Positions 4,006 to 37,486 of a stretch of DNA of 48,800 bases are shown here, piece after piece. The position numbers were made by a program, and so were the translations under genes. The DNA lies in the IMG/VR virus record IMGVR_UViG_3300031885_000027, positions 1 through 48,800 of that record; one strand, written 5' to 3'. Source of the DNA: a virus. A model generated the notes under the pieces. It was not told the origin of the DNA. It searched no databases and saw nothing but the letters and a program-made list of their open reading frames with translations. Each line of letters opens with the position of its first letter. The stretch's first letter is position 1.

Positions 4006-7000
4006 TCAGTTCAGGTGCTCACGCCGCTTGTACTCATAGATGGCGTTGGTGGCCGCAACCTTGACCATGTTGGCAAGGTCAGACCCACCGATACCGTTGA
4101 CGTTCACGGTGACGCTGGTGCCCCCTCCCCCAGCTCCTCCCTTAGGGACGATGGTCTCCCCCTTTCCGATAGTCGTGGGCATCTCTCCAGCCGGAGCCTT
4201 GAGGACCTTGGCAGTGCCATCTGGGTTCTGACCAGCAACGAAGCCTCCGGCTGCATGGGGCTTAGCCGCCTCCACCTTGCCCGCCACGAAGCTCTTGGCA
4301 TCCCCTCCCTGCTTGTTGAGGGCAGAGGTGATTGCCCCGGCTGACATGTCCTTGTAGAGAGAATACTCAACCAGGGCAACTCGAATGGCATCTAGAACGG
4401 ACTTCTCGATCACTGGACCAAGTTCGTTTGCTAGGAAGCTCTTGTCGAGCTTGACGTCTCTCTTGAGGATGCCCGCAAGAACGCCAAAGCCGTCCGTGAG
4501 GGTCATCTCACTTTGGTCCCGAATGGTCTGAGTTACTTCAGCGATCCCTGTGTCCTTGGTGGCCTGGCGGACTTCGTCCATCCCTTTCCGGATCGAGTCC
4601 AGAGCTGGCCCCTGTACCTCAGTAGGGGCTGGATTTACCGCTGGGGCTGCCGAAGCTGGCTTTGGGGGTGTGGCTGCTGACTCTGCTTCTGGCTCCGGGG
4701 CGGCTGCTGACTCTGTTCCCTGTGCTGCTGGCTCATCCCCTAAGCCAAGGAAATTCTCGATAGCCCCTGTGAAAGTGGGGGCATTTACATCATCTTCCCC
4801 GCCCGCACCAACCAGATTTTTTGCCGCCGCCCAGTAACCTGGTTTTTCAGGCTCTTTCGCTGCCTCCGGCTGCTCCGGCTTCTTCTCGTCCCCAAACCCA
4901 AAGAATTTCCCGATAGCTCCCTTGAACAGCTTCTTGGATAGTTTCTGGATGATGTCTATGAGTCCGTTAATCATCTGGAGGATAGGGTTCGTAATGGCGT
5001 AGGCCAGCTTGTCCACGAACTCCCCCACCCAGTTTGTTAGACTCCCCGCAATAATACCAACCTTTGCCTCAATGCTGACGATGTCATTCCCAATCTTCTT
5101 CTGAAGGACATACTGATCCTTGATCCCCTTCGCCTCATTCTGGGTAACCTTGGACATAGTCTCCATGATGGCGTTGGAGTCCTTGGCTTGCAATTGTGAG
5201 GCTGCATCAGCATCCGTCGAATTGATATGCAGACCCTTCAGGATGCCTTGCTCCTCTTTGGTGAGTTCCGCATTCGTTTGAAGTTTGGCAACGATTTCTC
5301 CCTTGGTCTGGTCCAAACTCATGTACGTCTCCTTCGCCATGAGCACCTGCTCATCGGACAACCCCGCAGCTTGACCCGCAGCCAACAGTTGCGCCCCCTT
5401 GAGGTCTTTGATGCTCGTCCCGTGAGTTATGTTCTTGATAGCAGCATCCATGAGGTCGAAGTTAGCTTTCCAGGAGTTGTCTGCCATTGCTGAGGCGGTA
5501 TCTACAGCATCCCCACTAGCTAACTGCTGAGTACGCAGAGCTGCCCTATTGATGTCTGATCTCTGGCTCGCATTAAACTTGTTGCCCATCCTCGTAGCCA
5601 TCTTAATCTGCCACTTGGATGTCTCCTCCGGACTCTTGTGAACCGCATCCAGCATCTCCTTAGTTTCTGCTGCACTCAACTTCAAGTCCCCAGCCATCTC
5701 CGTTAGTTTGCGGTCGCTATCCTTCATACCTATGGCGGCAGCCTTTGGCGTCCCAGCCATGATGGTGAGTTTCAGTCGTTCGGAGAGATCCTTATCCTTC
5801 GTCATGCCCACAAGGGACTGAGCGAACTTCTGAACTTGCTTGGGGTCCATCGCTTTACCCAGCATCTTCAACAACCGTGTGGTGTCTTCCAGTCGGTTGT
5901 TGTACAGGGTCATGTCATCACTCATCCCCCGAAGGATGTTGAAGAACTTGTTGGAGGCCATCCCAGAATTATTGGCAGCGTTCGTAATCGCCTGGAGTTT
6001 TAGCTGGGTTTTGTCCGCATCTATTCCCATGTCCGTGGTCATGTGGGACATGAGCTGGTTAACCTCCCCGATGCTCACTCCTAGACCCCTGCTAAAAACC
6101 ACAGATGACTGCACCAATTGCTTGGACAGAGCCTCTACCGGCATGTTGGCCTTCTTGGCAGCGTCACCAATCTGCTTCAGACCCAAACCCTCAGCCGCAA
6201 GACCACTGATCGTTGATGTGTACATCTCCGGAGTGATGCCCAAGTCCATGTTGTCTAAGTCGTGGGCAGCATCTCGTACCTTCTTGATCGTGGTGTGGAC
6301 ATCCGCGAAGGCTGCGTTGACGTTTCCGGCATGGCTTGCCAGGTACGCTGAGGTGTCTGATGCCTCCAGTAGGGAAGCATTGAACTGTTTTATTCTGGAA
6401 TCCAACTTCGTGATGATGTCGAACGCCACTGATAGTTGCCCCCCAAGAGCTGTCAGCACAGGCCCCATCTTAGTGAAGCCGCTCACAATCTTTCCCATAC
6501 CCCCCTCGGCCATCTTCATGGCCTTACCTGCGCCAGCTCCAGGCACCTCAGGTTTCTCAGTTCGTTTGCGGAGAAGATGCATCCCAGCCAACATCCCCTT
6601 CCCTATAATCTTGGCAGCCGCACCGGCCGCAGCAGGAAGGTCATTGTTGAGGAGTGCCTTCAGAGGGGCGGTGAGTAATTCCCCTCCATCAGAGATGCTT
6701 TGCGCTATCCTGGCTGGCCTGGCCTCAGACTCCTGATATGCGCTCTCCTCCAGTTTTTCCTTCATGTCGGCGGCTGACTTCTCAGCCTCCTCCATTGTCC
6801 GCTTGTACTTGGAGGCTTCGCTGTCCAGTTTACCGAAAATATTCTGCTGTTCCCTCAGACCGGTGTTCAGGTTTTGGAGAATCTTTTCGTCCGCCTTACG
6901 GTCTTGAGTTATTTTGGCCTGAATGGCACGACCCATTTCCAGTGCGTCTTTGTCCTTCCGGTCAGTTTGAGTGATGACCTTCCCGATCTTGTCCTCTTGC

Positions 7001-31339: not shown

Positions 31340-31840
31340 TCAAGCGGTCCCACAAGTGAGAAACCGCTGCACCATCGACCCTACACCAGCGGGGTCATCG
31401 TTGAAAGCGGATTCCCACACGATAAGGCAGTCCATGCCAGCCTCCTTGTAAGCCGCTACCAGCTCGGACTCATGGTCGAAGTTAGCCTTGCCTGTGAACA
31501 TACGGGAATGCCAGTAGTCTCCGAACACCTCCACCACCTTGATCACACCCCTCTTAGGATGCTTCGGATCTGGGCCGGGAAGGATGAAGTCAGGGTTCTT
31601 GTGGTGCCCCAGAAGATTGAGCCACCTCCAGAACGTACCGTTCCCCGTGTAGAGGAGTGCGGGATGGGCTGAAGCAAAACGGCGTTCAAGGAGGTTGGGG
31701 CCTGGTAGGCCCATCTTTTCCAGGTGAGCCTTGGCGTACTCCCGGTTCATCATGGGATGGGGGAATCCGTACTTAGCGATTACCGAGGTTAGTCTGTCGA
31801 GACTGCTCAGGCTAAGATCAAAGCCAAGAGTTCCACCCAA
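31340..31840 (-). CDS. Vsr-like (EDxHD-type) endonuclease
   Basis: 166 residues from TTG 31840; an in-frame stop lies four codons upstream, so the N-terminus may be truncated. The C-terminal 90 residues are a Vsr-fold nuclease: NPDFILPGP (D84), VIKVVEVFGDYWHS (E104, D108, H111), ESELVAAYKEAGMDCLIVWES. This matches the EDxHD homing-nuclease group, of which some members sit in genes split by inteins. It lies directly downstream of the C-terminal half of a fractured intein-bearing gene, only 24 bases away. It probably is, or was, a homing endonuclease; the very short N-terminus leaves little DNA-recognition domain. Confidence 0.75.
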   Translation of the reverse strand: MGGTLGFDLSLSSLDRLTSVIAKYGFPHPMMNREYAKAHLEKMGLPGPNLLERRFASAHPALLYTGNGTFWRWLNLLGHHKNPDFILPGPDPKHPKRGVIKVVEVFGDYWHSRMFTGKANFDHESELVAAYKEAGMDCLIVWESAFNDDPAGVGSMVQRFLTCGTA

Positions 31841-31864: not shown

Positions 31865-32761
31865 TCAAAATCCTATGAATTTGGCAGGCGTGAGCACGCC
31901 CGCACCCGTATAGGGGCCGAAGCTGGACCGGATCCCGATCCCGTACCTGGGCTGCTGCAAACCAGAGATAATCTTGACCGTCTGCTTGGCTCGTTCCAAC
32001 TGGGACTCCCAGGAGTCCTTGATGGCCGAGTAGGCACTCTCGTACTTGGAGGACTTCTCGATGGTCAGGCTCACGCCACCGATGGAATAGTCAAACTCGT
32101 CAGAGATCCAGTTCAGCATCACAGCGAACAAGGCATGCATCATCGCCCCGTTCAGGAGTAAGGTCCGCCACTCGGGCCGGGTCTGAACAAACTGATCCAG
32201 GTTTTGGAACGGAGTCCTCGGGGGTGCTGCCGTGACTTGGTCCATCGCCCGCTGAAGGTACTCGTCCAGCTCCGCGTCCTCCCAGATGAACCCGAAGACC
32301 TTGTTGAACTGTGTGACGGTCTCCTCGTGAGCAGGGGGCCTGAAATGGTAGTTCCTGTCGGGGGAATTTGAGACAACGACCTTCGAGCGATGCAATACAA
32401 AGTTGTGCCACTTGTCTGCGGTAAGGTCGTACATGTACTTCCTAGGTCCCACTTCCTGTATCCTGAGCACCTGTGGTGTACCTATGGATTCTCCGAGCAC
32501 CCCCAATACATGAGAGGTGAATCGAAGGGACTCCATCTCGACCTTGTGGGTGGGGCTGACGAAGACTCGGTGCCCACCAGTCAAAGTGAACACCCCAAAC
32601 TCAGTGGAGCCCTCCCAAATGTTCTCTGGTCCAACTTCTGCACGAGAGACATCCCGGATAGGCTGCCATTCCACTGCTCCCTCAGGGGATACGGATCGCA
32701 CCCGAAGTTGACCGAGAATGAAGGCATCTGTGATTCTGGATTGTTGTTCAGAGGACAACAT
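31865..32761 (-). CDS. C-terminal half of a fractured virion gene: intein C-part plus C-extein
   Basis: 298 residues from the ATG at 32761, which overlaps the end of the inserted endonuclease gene; AAGGA lies 11 bases upstream. Residues 1-132 are an intein C-part: block B TLTGGHRVFV, block F YMYDLTADKWHNFVL, block G VVVSN. The C-extein begins with Ser (SPDRNYHFRPP) and runs 166 residues through FGFIWEDAELDEYLQRAM and FVQTRPEWRTLLLNGAMM. Splicing to the product of 33649-34149 would make a 296-residue virion protein joined at LRDN/SPDRN. The penultimate intein residue is Ser rather than the usual His. Confidence 0.85.
   Translation of the reverse strand: MLSSEQQSRITDAFILGQLRVRSVSPEGAVEWQPIRDVSRAEVGPENIWEGSTEFGVFTLTGGHRVFVSPTHKVEMESLRFTSHVLGVLGESIGTPQVLRIQEVGPRKYMYDLTADKWHNFVLHRSKVVVSNSPDRNYHFRPPAHEETVTQFNKVFGFIWEDAELDEYLQRAMDQVTAAPPRTPFQNLDQFVQTRPEWRTLLLNGAMMHALFAVMLNWISDEFDYSIGGVSLTIEKSSKYESAYSAIKDSWESQLERAKQTVKIISGLQQPRYGIGIRSSFGPYTGAGVLTPAKFIGF
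32366..32761 (-). other. Split intein, C-terminal fragment (132 residues)
   Basis: The fragment runs from Met 32761 to the terminal Asn codon 32368-32366; the +1 residue is Ser at 32365-32363. It contains blocks B, F and G, so nearly the whole Hint fold resides here and only block A is supplied in trans. Confidence 0.85.
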
Positions 32762-33671
32762 GGGCCAACCGATCCTTTTCTGTCCAAATCTCGAAATCCC
32801 ACCCCTGAGCCAAGGCAAATTGACGGCTGCGTTCCAGTCGAGTCTGGTTCTTGTCGTTCGGAGGCAGCCGGAGTACCCAAGATGCTTTGACCTCGACCAA
32901 ACATACTCGGCCAGAGGAATACCGAATGATGATGTCGGGCAAGAAATAACCCACGGAGTCTCGTAATAGAGATTCTACGTCGTAGCTGACAACCTCTGGG
33001 TTGGTATCAAGAATGGTCATCGCTGCTCGCTCATAGGAGCTACGAGTCCAAACCTTTGAACGGGAGCACTTGATCCCATGATGCCAAGCACAGCGACCCC
33101 GCGAGGACTTACCAGGATGCTTGGCTATGTACTTGGTTGTACGCTTAGACCTTCTACGTCGCTCTTGGGGAGAACGGTGAAAAGCTAGAAGAAACTCCCT
33201 ATACTCGGGAGTCTCCCACAGTTTCTTGTGTGTGGCGGACATCCCCGAGCGCACTTCTGGCGTAAGGGCTGCTCTCTGTCGTTCGATCTCCCCCTGTGTA
33301 CGGACTCGCCCCTTAAAGAAGTCGTATTTTCCTTCTTGCCACCCCTGACGAAGCTGTGTGGACAGCCAAGGCTTCACTTCACCTTTCCTAGATGCCCCAA
33401 CCCTAGCCGCACTCTCCTGGCGATTCCTCTTGGAAGCTTCGTTCCACATAGCACGGGTGCCCCGCTGAATAGCCCCCAGCGATAGGCCCGTCACAAGGGT
33501 CATCTCAGTCCAAGATGTTCCTGCAAGATGCAACTCTGTGATTACATCTCTCCGTTTTTCGCTGACCCACTGAAGACCTTGTGGGAGCCGCCCTTTCTTG
33601 GCAAATAGTTCCCAGGAAAGGTCATGCTTCTCAAGCAATGGTACTAGCTCAGGATGTGGGCTTCTGAACAT
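32748..33671 (-). CDS. PD-(D/E)XK (TnsA-like) homing-type endonuclease inserted in a split intein
   Basis: 307 residues in a third frame between the two intein genes, overlapping the N-part gene by 23 bases and the C-part start by 14. The N-terminal region has an HTH (HLAGTSWTEMTLVTGLSLGAI). The middle is basic with a NUMOD-like flavour (MSATHKKLWETPEYREF) and a possible zinc knuckle CAWHHGIKC at 194-202. The C-terminal 100 residues are the nuclease: E214 in SSYERAAM, P245-D246 in FLPDIII, E260-V-K262 in CLVEVKASW, then FALAQGWDFEIWTEKD. This is the TnsA/PD-(D/E)XK arrangement. It should cut intein-less alleles and spread the split intein. Confidence 0.85.
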   Translation of the reverse strand: MFRSPHPELVPLLEKHDLSWELFAKKGRLPQGLQWVSEKRRDVITELHLAGTSWTEMTLVTGLSLGAIQRGTRAMWNEASKRNRQESAARVGASRKGEVKPWLSTQLRQGWQEGKYDFFKGRVRTQGEIERQRAALTPEVRSGMSATHKKLWETPEYREFLLAFHRSPQERRRRSKRTTKYIAKHPGKSSRGRCAWHHGIKCSRSKVWTRSSYERAAMTILDTNPEVVSYDVESLLRDSVGYFLPDIIIRYSSGRVCLVEVKASWVLRLPPNDKNQTRLERSRQFALAQGWDFEIWTEKDRLAHVVL

Positions 33672-34149
33672 CCCTCAGAGTCTCCCACAGGTCATCCATA
33701 CGGACAACCATATTTTCACCAGCAACGTCTAACTCCACCGTTTCTTCACCTCCCACACAGTTGTCCCTCAGAAGGATCCTCAACCGACGAACCAAGTCAG
33801 CCTCCACGTCTGTGAGGTTTGAAGAGAGGATGGTCGCCTTGTCGATGCAGTCGAATTCCTGGACCACCTGCTGGATAGGTCCACCCACTGTCTCTCGAAA
33901 GGTCCACCTCACTCGATAGGATCCTATGTTGGCATCCAGGGGGATGATGACCGAAGCGAAGTACTCCCCTACCGAGGGGTTCACCGGGATCCTCGTAGGC
34001 GAGCCTAAGAGCACCTCCATGCCTGTCGTGTTGTCGTACAGGGCATAGGTGATCTCAGCCGCATTGGTCGGCGTGTTGTTGGTGTTCTCCAGGAAGATGT
34101 TCAGGTCTTCCCGGCCCAACTGTTGACCTCGGTAGTAACTTACGGGCAT
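33649..34149 (-). CDS. N-terminal half of a fractured virion gene: N-extein plus intein N-part
   Basis: 166 residues. Residues 1-130 are the extein: a beta-sandwich segment (GEYFASVIIPLDANIGSYRV, RWTFRETVGGPIQQV), then a helix VEADLVRRLRILLRDN. At C131 an intein starts: CVGGEETVELDVAGE and VRMDDLWETLRD are block A and its following helix, ending at S166. The 36-residue intein piece lacks block B, which is found in the gene at 31865-32761. The beta-sandwich resembles those in the proteins encoded at 34511-35476 and 40629-41018. The spliced protein is probably a neck or tail component. Confidence 0.85.
   Translation of the reverse strand: MPVSYYRGQQLGREDLNIFLENTNNTPTNAAEITYALYDNTTGMEVLLGSPTRIPVNPSVGEYFASVIIPLDANIGSYRVRWTFRETVGGPIQQVVQEFDCIDKATILSSNLTDVEADLVRRLRILLRDNCVGGEETVELDVAGENMVVRMDDLWETLRDVQKPTS
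33652..33759 (-). other. Split intein, N-terminal fragment (36 residues, block A only)
   Basis: It begins with the nucleophilic Cys codon at 33759-33757, directly after the Asn that ends LRDN, and stops at TGA 33651-33649. A break this early is atypical; known natural split inteins usually break after block B. Short N-parts of 16-25 residues are known for the VidaL and AceL-TerL type. Confidence 0.85.
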
Positions 34150-35476: not shown

Positions 35477-35836
35477 GAGGGTTCTCTCTTAGTGTGTCAA
35501 AAAGAGACTCTGCGATGGGGTGCCAAAAGCCTCCCCAGACGGGATTCCGGACGGTTTGAACACGACCGGGATGTATACGACCTGGACGGATCCGAACGCC
35601 CCCACAGATGAGATGCCTAGGAATGCCACGACGTGCCTGTATTCCGTTAGGTCAAACGCCTGAGTGGGCGTCCCGAACGCCTCGGCCGACAGGATGCCCG
35701 GAGGTTGAATGATACTCGAAGAGAGGAGGAATTCCTGAGTAGGTAGGCCGAACGCCTCAGCCGAGAAGACTCCTGTAGGCCGAGGGATGAACTCTTGGAT
35801 GGATGTTCCAAATGCCTCACCTGACAGGATCCCTAC
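35236..35836 (-). repeat. AFGTP motif repeats straddling two genes
   Basis: About nine copies at intervals of roughly 20-26 residues: five at the C-terminus of the gene ending at 35489 (GILSGEAFGTS, GVFSAEAFGLP, GILSAEAFGTP, GISSVGAFGSV, GIPSGEAFGTP) and three to four at the N-terminus of the gene starting at 35476. The array is cut only by a stop, 12 bases and a new GTG. Confidence 0.75.
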
Positions 35837-37486
35837 AGGGAAGAGATTTTTGACGATGGACGCATCCAGGACCATCGTAGGTAACGTGAACAGCGTCGTA
35901 CTGGCAGGGATGTCCAGTGACCCCTGTACAGTCCACCCCGTGATGGTGCTCAGAGATGCATTGCCGACCATGTCGGCCTGATTTGTTAAAGTCTGACCAG
36001 CAATCGCCGGAAGGTTTGTGCTGGCCTGTGCAGTGAGAATCTCTGAGGCCGTGTATCCCGGATAAGCGGGGAGAACCACAGCAACGGGGATGGTGACACT
36101 GACGGACCCTGTGAACCCTGCCGTCGAAGTCAGGGTCAACGCCGAGTCTGCTACGGACACAACGGTTCCCACCAATGTCACGATGGTGGTGACCGCAAAC
36201 GTAACCGTACCATTCATTTCGATTACGTTACCGGTATACCAGACAGCCGTCGTGTTGAACGAGTTGAGGAGATTGTAGGTGGCGGTTTCCCCCTCGACAG
36301 CATCCGGATGAGAGGCAAATGCACTGGCAGCCGCAGCATCTAGATTGTTTGAAGAAGCCCAAGTCGAGGTTTGACTGAAAGCCGTGGAGGAGAAGTAGTC
36401 GATGGCCCTGTCGGACGTAAATCCAGCAGTTGTGGTCAGCGTTTCAGAAGCCAGGGCAGTGAGATCGTTGGACGGCTGGAAGACAGGTGTGACAGCTAGG
36501 ATCAGATTCCCAGCGGCGTCCAATGTTTCGGTGACTACGAACCCCGCTCCGGTAGTCGCTATCGTCTGAGAAACAGGGATGTCCACTGAACTTGTCAGGA
36601 CAAAAGCACCTGTTTGTGCGAGCGTTTGGGAAGCTACAGCAGTGAGGTCGTTGGTTGGGGCAAATACACCCGTCTGTGCGAGCGTCTGGGATGCCAGGGC
36701 AGTGAGATCGTTGGCCGTAGACCAACTTGTTGTGGTCGGGAGCGTTGTGCTCAGGAAGAAGCTGATTGTGCTAGAAGCGGTGAACCCCGCCGTAGTCGAT
36801 ATGGTTCCTAGAGAAGCCGGGATGTCTAGGGTTCCGACTAGAACTAAGGCAGCGGTCTGAGTGAGCGTCTGGGATGCAACAGCAGTGAGGTCGTTGGTCT
36901 GAGTGAGTGCTGCTGTTTGAGTGAGCGTCTGGGATGCAACAGCATCCAGAGTCTCGGTGGTTGTGAAGCTAGTAGTTGCGGGCAGCGTTAGAGTTACCCC
37001 AACACCCAACTGGGAATCAGTCGAGAAGCCTCCCGTCTGTGAGGTGGCCAGTGAAGCCGGGATGTCCAGGTTCCCCACCTCACTGAACGCGGCTGTCTGA
37101 GCAAACGTCTGAGAAGCCAGGGCAGTGAGATCGTTGGTCGGGGTGAACCCAGCCGTTACGGGGAGTGTCTCGGATGCTACTGCATCCAGATTGGTGGTTG
37201 TGGTGAACCCCGCCGTTACAGGAAGGGTCTGGTTTCCTGCTGCATCAAGCGTCTGGTCTGTAGTGAACCCCGCTGCTGTTTGACTTAGTGTTTGAGTTTG
37301 TTCCCACAGAACAGTCCCCGATTGGATAGACCCAAGGATAACATCGTTCGCCCCATATGGAGGGGTTGTGCTGAACAGAATGATGCTCAGAGCCCTGGCC
37401 GGAGCCGTGCCTGATGGAACGTAGAGTCGGATGTCGTTCGGCCCATCCAACCCCGTCGGTTGCAGGGTGATGTCGGCCAACGCCAT
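35489..37486 (-). CDS. Repeat-rich fibre/adhesin-like virion protein
   Basis: 665 residues. After an N-terminal beta segment (LQPTGLDGPNDIRLYVPSG), residues about 60-395 are some 16 tandem copies of a 20-residue Thr/Ala/Ser-rich unit of the type NDLTALASQTLAQTAAF. Looser copies continue to about 525. Residues 550-660 hold five AFGTP-type repeats. There are almost no charged residues or Cys. The regular period suggests a beta-solenoid or fibrous shaft exposed on the virion, possibly binding carbohydrate. It lies among appendage-like genes. Confidence 0.7.
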   Translation of the reverse strand: MALADITLQPTGLDGPNDIRLYVPSGTAPARALSIILFSTTPPYGANDVILGSIQSGTVLWEQTQTLSQTAAGFTTDQTLDAAGNQTLPVTAGFTTTTNLDAVASETLPVTAGFTPTNDLTALASQTFAQTAAFSEVGNLDIPASLATSQTGGFSTDSQLGVGVTLTLPATTSFTTTETLDAVASQTLTQTAALTQTNDLTAVASQTLTQTAALVLVGTLDIPASLGTISTTAGFTASSTISFFLSTTLPTTTSWSTANDLTALASQTLAQTGVFAPTNDLTAVASQTLAQTGAFVLTSSVDIPVSQTIATTGAGFVVTETLDAAGNLILAVTPVFQPSNDLTALASETLTTTAGFTSDRAIDYFSSTAFSQTSTWASSNNLDAAAASAFASHPDAVEGETATYNLLNSFNTTAVWYTGNVIEMNGTVTFAVTTIVTLVGTVVSVADSALTLTSTAGFTGSVSVTIPVAVVLPAYPGYTASEILTAQASTNLPAIAGQTLTNQADMVGNASLSTITGWTVQGSLDIPASTTLFTLPTMVLDASIVKNLFPVGILSGEAFGTSIQEFIPRPTGVFSAEAFGLPTQEFLLSSSIIQPPGILSAEAFGTPTQAFDLTEYRHVVAFLGISSVGAFGSVQVVYIPVVFKPSGIPSGEAFGTPSQSLFLTH
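36304..37309 (-). repeat. Degenerate 60-base (20-residue) tandem repeat array
   Basis: About 16 units. The period is plain in DNA: the same 27 bases occur at 36858-36884 and 36918-36944, exactly 60 apart. Units alternate between NDLTA(L/V)ASQTL and (T/N)LD(A/I) forms, suggesting expansion from larger multi-unit blocks. Confidence 0.8.

What the first reader, a model, noticed from the sequence alone, without database searches (positions are those of the whole stretch)
33652..33759. Very early, atypical split point in the intein (36-residue N-part)
The N fragment holds only block A. Block B (TGGH) is in the C fragment. Most natural split inteins break after block B. The small N-part resembles the rare AceL-TerL and VidaL class, in layout and in the helix DDLWETL. 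The penultimate intein residue is Ser (VSN) instead of His, which may alter cleavage chemistry.
Basis: partly seen in the sequence, partly recalled or inferred. Interest (0 to 1): 0.85.

Follow-up and report, generated by a model that had tools for sequence, protein, structure and literature searches.

The report
Early-split intein in phage connector gene
A phage head-tail connector protein is encoded as two separate genes, each carrying part of a self-excising protein element (an intein) that has been cut unusually early; relatives in 12 other phage lineages show the cut is real, is where gene-jumping nucleases lodge, and in some phages leaves one protein encoded in three pieces.

Summary
On the minus strand, 33759-33652 encodes a 36-residue intein N-fragment (Cys1) ending in a stop. 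A nuclease gene follows, then a 132-residue intein C-fragment (32761-32366) with block B (TGGH), F and G, followed by Ser+1. The split lies just after the first helix. This is the "S2" position of AceL-TerL and GOS-TerL, not the earlier S1 position of VidaL. Twelve other distinct lineages carry the same split at the same site of the same gene (head-tail connector), with 29-36 aa N-fragments. About 70 distinct intein-free alleles give the empty site. AlphaFold gives the C-fragment a confident intein fold that lacks only the start. Profile alignment to the AceL/GOS consensus (Cat, PDB 6DSL) puts the split at the same point. Penultimate Ser is conserved in 11 of 13 alleles; two have His. The nuclease in the gap is TnsA-like PD-(D/E)XK in most and HNH in one; two other alleles have lost it yet remain split. 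A second intein at another site of the gene is split at the same early point by Vsr-like nucleases. Three phages carry both, giving natural three-piece genes. Trans-splicing itself is inferred, not assayed.

The parts
33760..34149 (-). N-extein: residues 1-130 of the phage head-tail connector protein
   Evidence: 66% identical to intein-free homologues; connector annotation
33652..33759 (-). IntN, 36 aa: block A (Cys1) and the N2-type helix MDDLWETL; stop at 33649-33651
32748..33671 (-). Free-standing putative homing endonuclease, 307 aa, TnsA-like PD-(D/E)XK fold; overlaps the IntN end and the IntC start
   Evidence: Pfam PF08722 26.6 bits vs cutoff 26.5; LPD...LVEVKA motif conserved in relatives; 771 bp of it deleted in L002
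32773..32779 (-). AAAAGGA, putative ribosome-binding site of IntC inside the 3' end of the nuclease gene
   Evidence: similar GAGAAGGA-type sequence before IntC in most relatives, and kept in the deletion allele L002
32366..32761 (-). IntC, 132 aa: helix alpha2, block B (TGGH), block F (YDLTADKWHNF), block G (VVVSN)
32570..32581 (-). Block B core T-G-G-H
31865..32365 (-). C-extein: Ser+1 then PDRNYHFRPP..., rest of the head-tail connector protein

Best explanation
This is a naturally split class-1-type intein of the atypical S2 layout, inserted at the most conserved motif (LRDN|PDRNYH) of a phage head-tail connector protein. A free-standing nuclease gene (TnsA-like PD-(D/E)XK, presumably a homing endonuclease) sits in the intein's alpha1-alpha2 loop and breaks the host gene in two. 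The two products, ExteinN-IntN(36 aa) and IntC(132 aa)-ExteinC, are translated separately; IntC has its own putative ribosome site in the tail of the nuclease gene. IntN, a small acidic peptide (net charge -6), docks into the nearly complete HINT fold of IntC. Cys1 forms the thioester, Ser+1 attacks, Asn cyclises, and the connector is joined. Shown: the anatomy, predicted fold, site, conservation, empty sites, and presence/absence polymorphism with a diverged tract around the insertion. Inferred: splicing activity, nuclease cutting, and any kinetic effect of the penultimate Ser.
For: Thirteen lineages with the same split. Intein-free alleles with DN|N directly joined are the common state. IntC profile hits the Mja KlbA intein, 2jmz, E 4.5e-4. 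AlphaFold IntC has pLDDT 92.5 and matches inteins (3ifj_A Z 15.1, rmsd 2.4, 115 aligned, beginning at intein residue 21). The contiguous relative (L005 second site) has pLDDT 95.9, matches inteins from residue 1 (2cw7 Z 21.4, rmsd 2.9, 154 aligned), and its alpha1 (21-29) and alpha2 (35-41) bracket the split. Profile alignment to Cat scores 32.7 against a best of 16.1 in 30 shuffles, with the breaks coinciding. L120 has the halves of the second-site intein in permuted order, so only trans-splicing could join them. L005 and L011 are about 98% identical in DNA except around the insertion, where identity drops to 73-85%.
Against: No splicing, cleavage or homing assay exists. Pfam Intein_splicing scores only 17.5 against a cutoff of 35.8 for the C part. 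Penultimate His is replaced by Ser. The IntN:IntC complex could not be modelled, because fused chains are not accepted by the structure tool.
Confidence: 0.88

Rival explanations
1. The halves no longer splice: IntN and IntC remain only as docking domains that hold two connector subunits together, or IntC only cleaves itself off.
For: Penultimate Ser replaces His in this clade; inteins altered at conserved positions can favour cleavage.
Against: Cys1, block B TxxH (GH in all 13), block F His-Asn, terminal Asn and a Ser/Cys at +1 are kept across all 13 lineages. The +1 residue is Ser or Cys in every occupied allele but usually Asn in empty ones, which fits selection for a splicing nucleophile.
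Confidence: 0.08
2. Degenerate element or sequencing/assembly artefact: a contiguous intein broken by an error or by a recent nuclease insertion, with the connector gene dead.
For: The window is a 48.8-kb virus record from a metagenome collection; some alleles show decayed nucleases (L105, L103).
Against: Same break in 13 lineages; codon-position bias; intact ORFs with conserved catalytic residues; L002 lost 771 bp of nuclease in frame while both halves stayed at 99.4-100% nucleotide identity.
Confidence: 0.02
3. The halves are joined at translation (frameshift, bypass or readthrough) and the intein then acts in cis.
For: In L103 the frame of the C part is open for 70 bases across the end of IntN.
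Against: In the window an 887-bp gap holding another gene separates the halves; in L002 the C frame opens only after the IntN stop; in L120 the C half precedes the N half.
Confidence: 0.02

Closest known systems
AceL-TerL and GOS-TerL atypically split inteins, and their consensus Cat (PDB 6DSL)
   Same: Short IntN (25, 37 and 30 aa; PMC13014065, PMC11766414), split right after helix alpha1; the window profile aligns end to end with the breaks coinciding.
   Different: Host is a head-tail connector, not the terminase. IntC begins with an extra helix alpha2 (residues 4-15). Penultimate Ser. Nucleophiles are Cys1/Ser+1 (Cat and AceL: Cys/Cys; GOS: Ser/Cys).
VidaL and PolB16 OarG split inteins (S1)
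   Same: Short IntN, same HINT fold (6vgv Z 12.2 with rmsd 2.8 over 112 residues for IntC).
   Different: Split earlier, after beta2, leaving 16 and 15 aa; helix alpha1 lies in their C part.
Fractured genes with split inteins and free-standing homing endonucleases (Dassa et al. 2009, cited in PMC7090010)
   Same: Host gene, intein and free-standing nuclease arranged in the same way.
   Different: Early split site; the nuclease at this site is TnsA-like PD-(D/E)XK or HNH. Vsr-like nucleases occur only at the gene's second site. The Dassa paper itself was not read; what it reports beyond its title rests on memory.
MIJ3 jumbo-phage PolB split intein with HNH nuclease (PMC6892783)
   Same: Jumbo phage, split intein, nuclease gene in the gap.
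   Different: Split after block N4 (blocks A, N2, B and N4 all in the N part), in DNA polymerase.

Membership tests
Atypically (S2) split inteins of AceL/GOS-TerL layout | IntN of about 15-37 aa encoded by its own gene | tested here: met
   36 aa in the window, 29-36 aa in 13 lineages
Atypically (S2) split inteins of AceL/GOS-TerL layout | Split directly after helix alpha1 | tested here: met
   Alignment with 6DSL; alpha1/alpha2 positions in the contiguous relative's model
Atypically (S2) split inteins of AceL/GOS-TerL layout | IntC alone forms the rest of the HINT fold | tested here: met
   Predicted model pLDDT 92.5, intein matches starting near residue 20; prediction only
Atypically (S2) split inteins of AceL/GOS-TerL layout | Splices in trans | not testable with these tools
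   Needs purified halves
Class 1 inteins | Cys/Ser1, block B T-x-x-H, terminal Asn, C/S/T at +1 | tested here: met
   (the T of TxxH is invariant in column 61, H in 64)
Class 1 inteins | Penultimate His (common, not required; PMC7664689) | tested here: not met
   Ser in 11 of 13 alleles, His in L128 and L136
Class 1 inteins | Pfam Intein_splicing above curated cutoff | tested here: inconclusive
   17.5 bits vs 35.8; only the C part could match
VidaL-type (S1) split inteins | Split directly after strand beta2, about 16-aa IntN | tested here: not met
   Split is after alpha1, 36 aa (definition)
Homing endonuclease, TnsA-like PD-(D/E)XK | PD...ExK catalytic motif and TnsA-like domain | tested here: met
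   PF08722 at cutoff, 39 bits in L136; the PD...ExK motif kept in most relatives, variant spacing or flanks in L128/L136
Homing endonuclease, TnsA-like PD-(D/E)XK | Cuts the intein-free allele at the insertion site | not testable with these tools
   Only indirect: presence/absence polymorphism and diverged flanks L005 vs L011

The most novel reading that the evidence does not exclude
The alpha1-alpha2 loop (S2) is a recurrent landing site for free-standing nucleases of at least three families (TnsA-like, HNH, Vsr-like), so that it, and not only the classical position, is a natural place where inteins become split. Once split, they stay split after nuclease loss, can be shuffled in gene order, and can coexist in one gene, giving natural proteins assembled from three pieces by two split inteins of different type (L018, L119, L105).
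Probability: 0.7. Interest if true: 0.78.

Novelty: new variant of a known kind. Interest (0 to 1): 0.62.

Why it matters
Natural short-IntN split inteins are few (AceL-TerL, GOS-TerL, VidaL and PolB16 are the ones named in the papers read) and are valued because the N peptide can be synthesised chemically. This is a family of more than a dozen in a new host protein, with Cys1/Ser+1 chemistry and conserved penultimate Ser. It also gives unusually direct evidence on how atypical splits arise: across the two insertion sites the same gene shows empty, contiguous, nuclease-bearing split, nuclease-deleted split, permuted and doubly split states. The three-piece genes are natural counterparts of the recently engineered three-segment splicing (PMC12707363).

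Tried and rejected
Pfam and PHROGs gave nothing for the N gene. PHROG 'head closure' for the nuclease was rejected as a function: it matches the nuclease fold shared with phage head-completion proteins. P0004 (31340-31840) was considered as part of the system and set aside, because L002 lacks it while keeping both intein halves. One genome-contig scan gave only two loci. The paper on GOS-TerL (PMC4661395) is not held and the one on fractured genes was not read, so whether AceL/GOS-TerL have a nuclease in their gap is not known here. Direction of the split/contiguous change between L011 and L005 at the second site was not resolved: they are sisters with near-zero branches, but the wider tree is unresolved. 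The AceL sequences used as queries came from memory; the comparison uses the Cat sequence printed by the PDB search instead, with the first two residues masked and the C-terminal Asn, which the printed match does not include, added from knowledge.

Full report
WHAT IS THERE. The region is on the minus strand of a 48.8-kb virus record. Gene 33671-32748 encodes a 307-aa nuclease. A third ORF encodes, from ATG 32761, MLSSEQQ...VVVSN (132 aa, down to 32366) followed by SPDRNYHFRPP... to the stop at 31865. It holds block B (LTGGHRVF), block F (YMYDLTADKWHNF) and block G (VVVSN|S).

THE HOST GENE AND THE EMPTY SITE. A search of IMG/VR for the N protein and then for the host protein gave 259 relatives; of the 80 best kept, most are uninterrupted. 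Eleven intein-free proteins align along their whole length and read ...LRDNNPDRNYHF... with no gap where the window has the intein. The site lies in the most conserved stretch (RDNNPxRNYH). Among distinct unoccupied alleles the residue that would be +1 is mostly Asn (63 of about 74), while occupied alleles always have Ser or Cys, so the element probably arrived with its own nucleophile. The host is a head-tail connector protein: a relative in Tunturiibacter phage Tunturi_5 is so annotated, and 7 of 11 homologues match PHROG 17327 'head-tail connector' (best E 8.6e-4).

THE SPLIT IS REAL. Searches with the C-fragment and the nuclease gave twelve further distinct lineages with the same insertion (near-identical copies such as L002 and L109 not counted). 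In all of them the N part ends 29-36 residues into the intein, at or shortly after the motif L-(W/F/Y)-x-x-(hydrophobic), and the C part is 124-134 aa. Pairwise codon-position differences (0.30/0.22/0.62 for IntN; 0.41/0.32/0.65 for IntC) show constraint on the protein in both fragments. The relative L120 carries, at the second site described below, the C half (4995-5618) in front of the N half (5663-6430) on the same strand, with no nuclease; nothing but trans-splicing could join those. That case rests on one contig.

WHERE IN THE FOLD. AlphaFold2 with 13 natural sequences gives the window IntC a confident model (pLDDT 92.5, pTM 0.82). It matches solved inteins (3ifj_A Z 15.1, rmsd 2.4, 115 aligned), starting at about intein residue 21. 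A natural contiguous relative, the second-site intein of L005, gives pLDDT 95.9 and matches inteins from residue 1 (2cw7 Z 21.4, rmsd 2.9, 154 aligned). In it, beta1-beta2-alpha1 (21-29) correspond to IntN and alpha2 (35-41) begins IntC, so the split is in the alpha1-alpha2 loop. The site-1 profile aligned to Cat, the AceL/GOS-TerL consensus of PDB 6DSL (chains found), scores 32.7 against a maximum of 16.1 for 30 shuffles, and the two breaks coincide...MDDLWETL.. | M.. and ...MEDLYQRLA | MF... Published nomenclature places AceL and GOS-TerL at S2, after alpha1, and VidaL and PolB16 at S1, after beta2 (PMC13014065). This is therefore an S2 intein. GOS-TerL's IntN is 37 aa (PMC11766414), almost the same length.

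PENULTIMATE SERINE. Eleven of 13 alleles end in SN|; L128 ends SHN|S and L136 GHN|C, and these two pair together in the tree (98/87). Ser is thus a conserved feature of the window's clade rather than damage. Loss of this His is compatible with splicing in other inteins (PMC7664689). Whether it changes C-cleavage here is untested.

THE NUCLEASES. The gap at this site usually holds a TnsA-like PD-(D/E)XK nuclease (PF08722; motif). In L104 it holds an HNH nuclease (PF01844, E 1.6e-9). In L105 the nuclease is truncated and its ORF remnant runs into the IntC frame, and in L103 it is gone (119-nt gap). L002 is almost identical to the window but lacks 771 bp inside the nuclease, in frame, while both halves are kept at 99.4-100% nucleotide identity. 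The kept 3' end of the nuclease gene contains the putative ribosome site of IntC (AAAAGGA in the window; GAGAAGGA-like in many relatives), which suggests why remnants persist. L005 and L011 have 98% identical N-exteins and 100% identical C-ends but differ in having the site-1 intein; identity falls to 73-85% only around it, the pattern expected of homing with co-conversion. L012 lacks both inteins.

A SECOND INTEIN IN THE SAME GENE. At DEF|SYSIGG, about 15 relatives carry a different intein (Ser1, AHN|S or T) split at the same early point, mostly with a Vsr-like/DUF559 nuclease in the gap. L005, L123 and L127 carry contiguous forms. L101 has the nuclease fused in frame to IntC. L018, L119 and L105 have both split inteins, so the connector is encoded in three pieces, the middle one being IntC1-extein-IntN2. 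The two inteins form separate clades (100/100) and differ in nucleophile (Cys1 against Ser1) and block G (SN against AHN), which would help prevent mis-joining; orthogonality is inferred.

MECHANISM. Inferred from class 1 chemistry and from published work on atypical split inteins: IntN (net charge -5 to -8 in all 13) docks onto the pre-folded IntC, completing the HINT fold; N-S acyl shift at Cys1, transesterification to Ser+1, Asn132 cyclisation, and O-N shift yield LRDN-SPDRNYH. Relative to empty alleles the joined host protein usually has Ser in place of Asn at the junction. The nuclease presumably spreads the cassette.

VERDICT. The reading is right on AceL-TerL and wrong on VidaL. The element is a new variant of a known kind; the family around it (same early split under three nuclease families, splits that outlive the nuclease, three-piece genes) is more interesting than the single locus. 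No held paper describing this family or natural three-piece genes of this sort was found in nine searches, but most subscription literature is not held, so priority is not established.

Noticed in passing
L018 4511-8177; L119 1903-5627; L105 3953-6500: One connector gene encoded in three pieces by two different atypically split inteins; in L105 both nucleases are lost or decayed.
   Followed up: partly
L120 4995-6430: The C half of the second-site split intein gene lies in front of the N half on the same strand, with no nuclease: permuted order that would require trans-splicing. Seen on one contig only.
   Followed up: partly
L002 1-450 vs window 33639-32869: Clean 771-bp in-frame deletion inside the nuclease in an otherwise near-identical allele; the intein remains split.
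   Followed up: yes
L005, L011, L012 (connector gene): Closely related phages differ in intein content at two sites, with a diverged tract just around the site-1 insertion, as expected of homing with co-conversion.
   Followed up: partly
L005 7046-7522 vs L011 5685-7102: Sister alleles at the second site, one contiguous and one split by a Vsr-like nuclease, about 90% identical: a recent split or re-fusion, direction not resolved.
   Followed up: partly
window 31340-31840 (-): 166-aa ORF straight after the C-extein with a Vsr-like look (VVEVFGDYWHSRMF) and a weak homing-endonuclease PHROG match; absent from L002, so probably a second mobile nuclease.
   Followed up: partly
L128 2348-3736: A third, contiguous intein in the same gene near its C-terminus (FGPF|S...SHN|SGRGVLSPR).
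   Followed up: no
L107 5001: IntC has no ATG at the usual start (ATT after GGAGAAGG), and +1 is Cys instead of Ser.
   Followed up: no
L101 4652-5828: In a contig binned to an Altiarchaeales MAG, a Vsr-like nuclease is fused in frame to the second-site IntC.
   Followed up: no
window 35489-37486 (-): 665-aa ORF whose DNA shows recurring similar segments; probably a repetitive structural protein.
   Followed up: no
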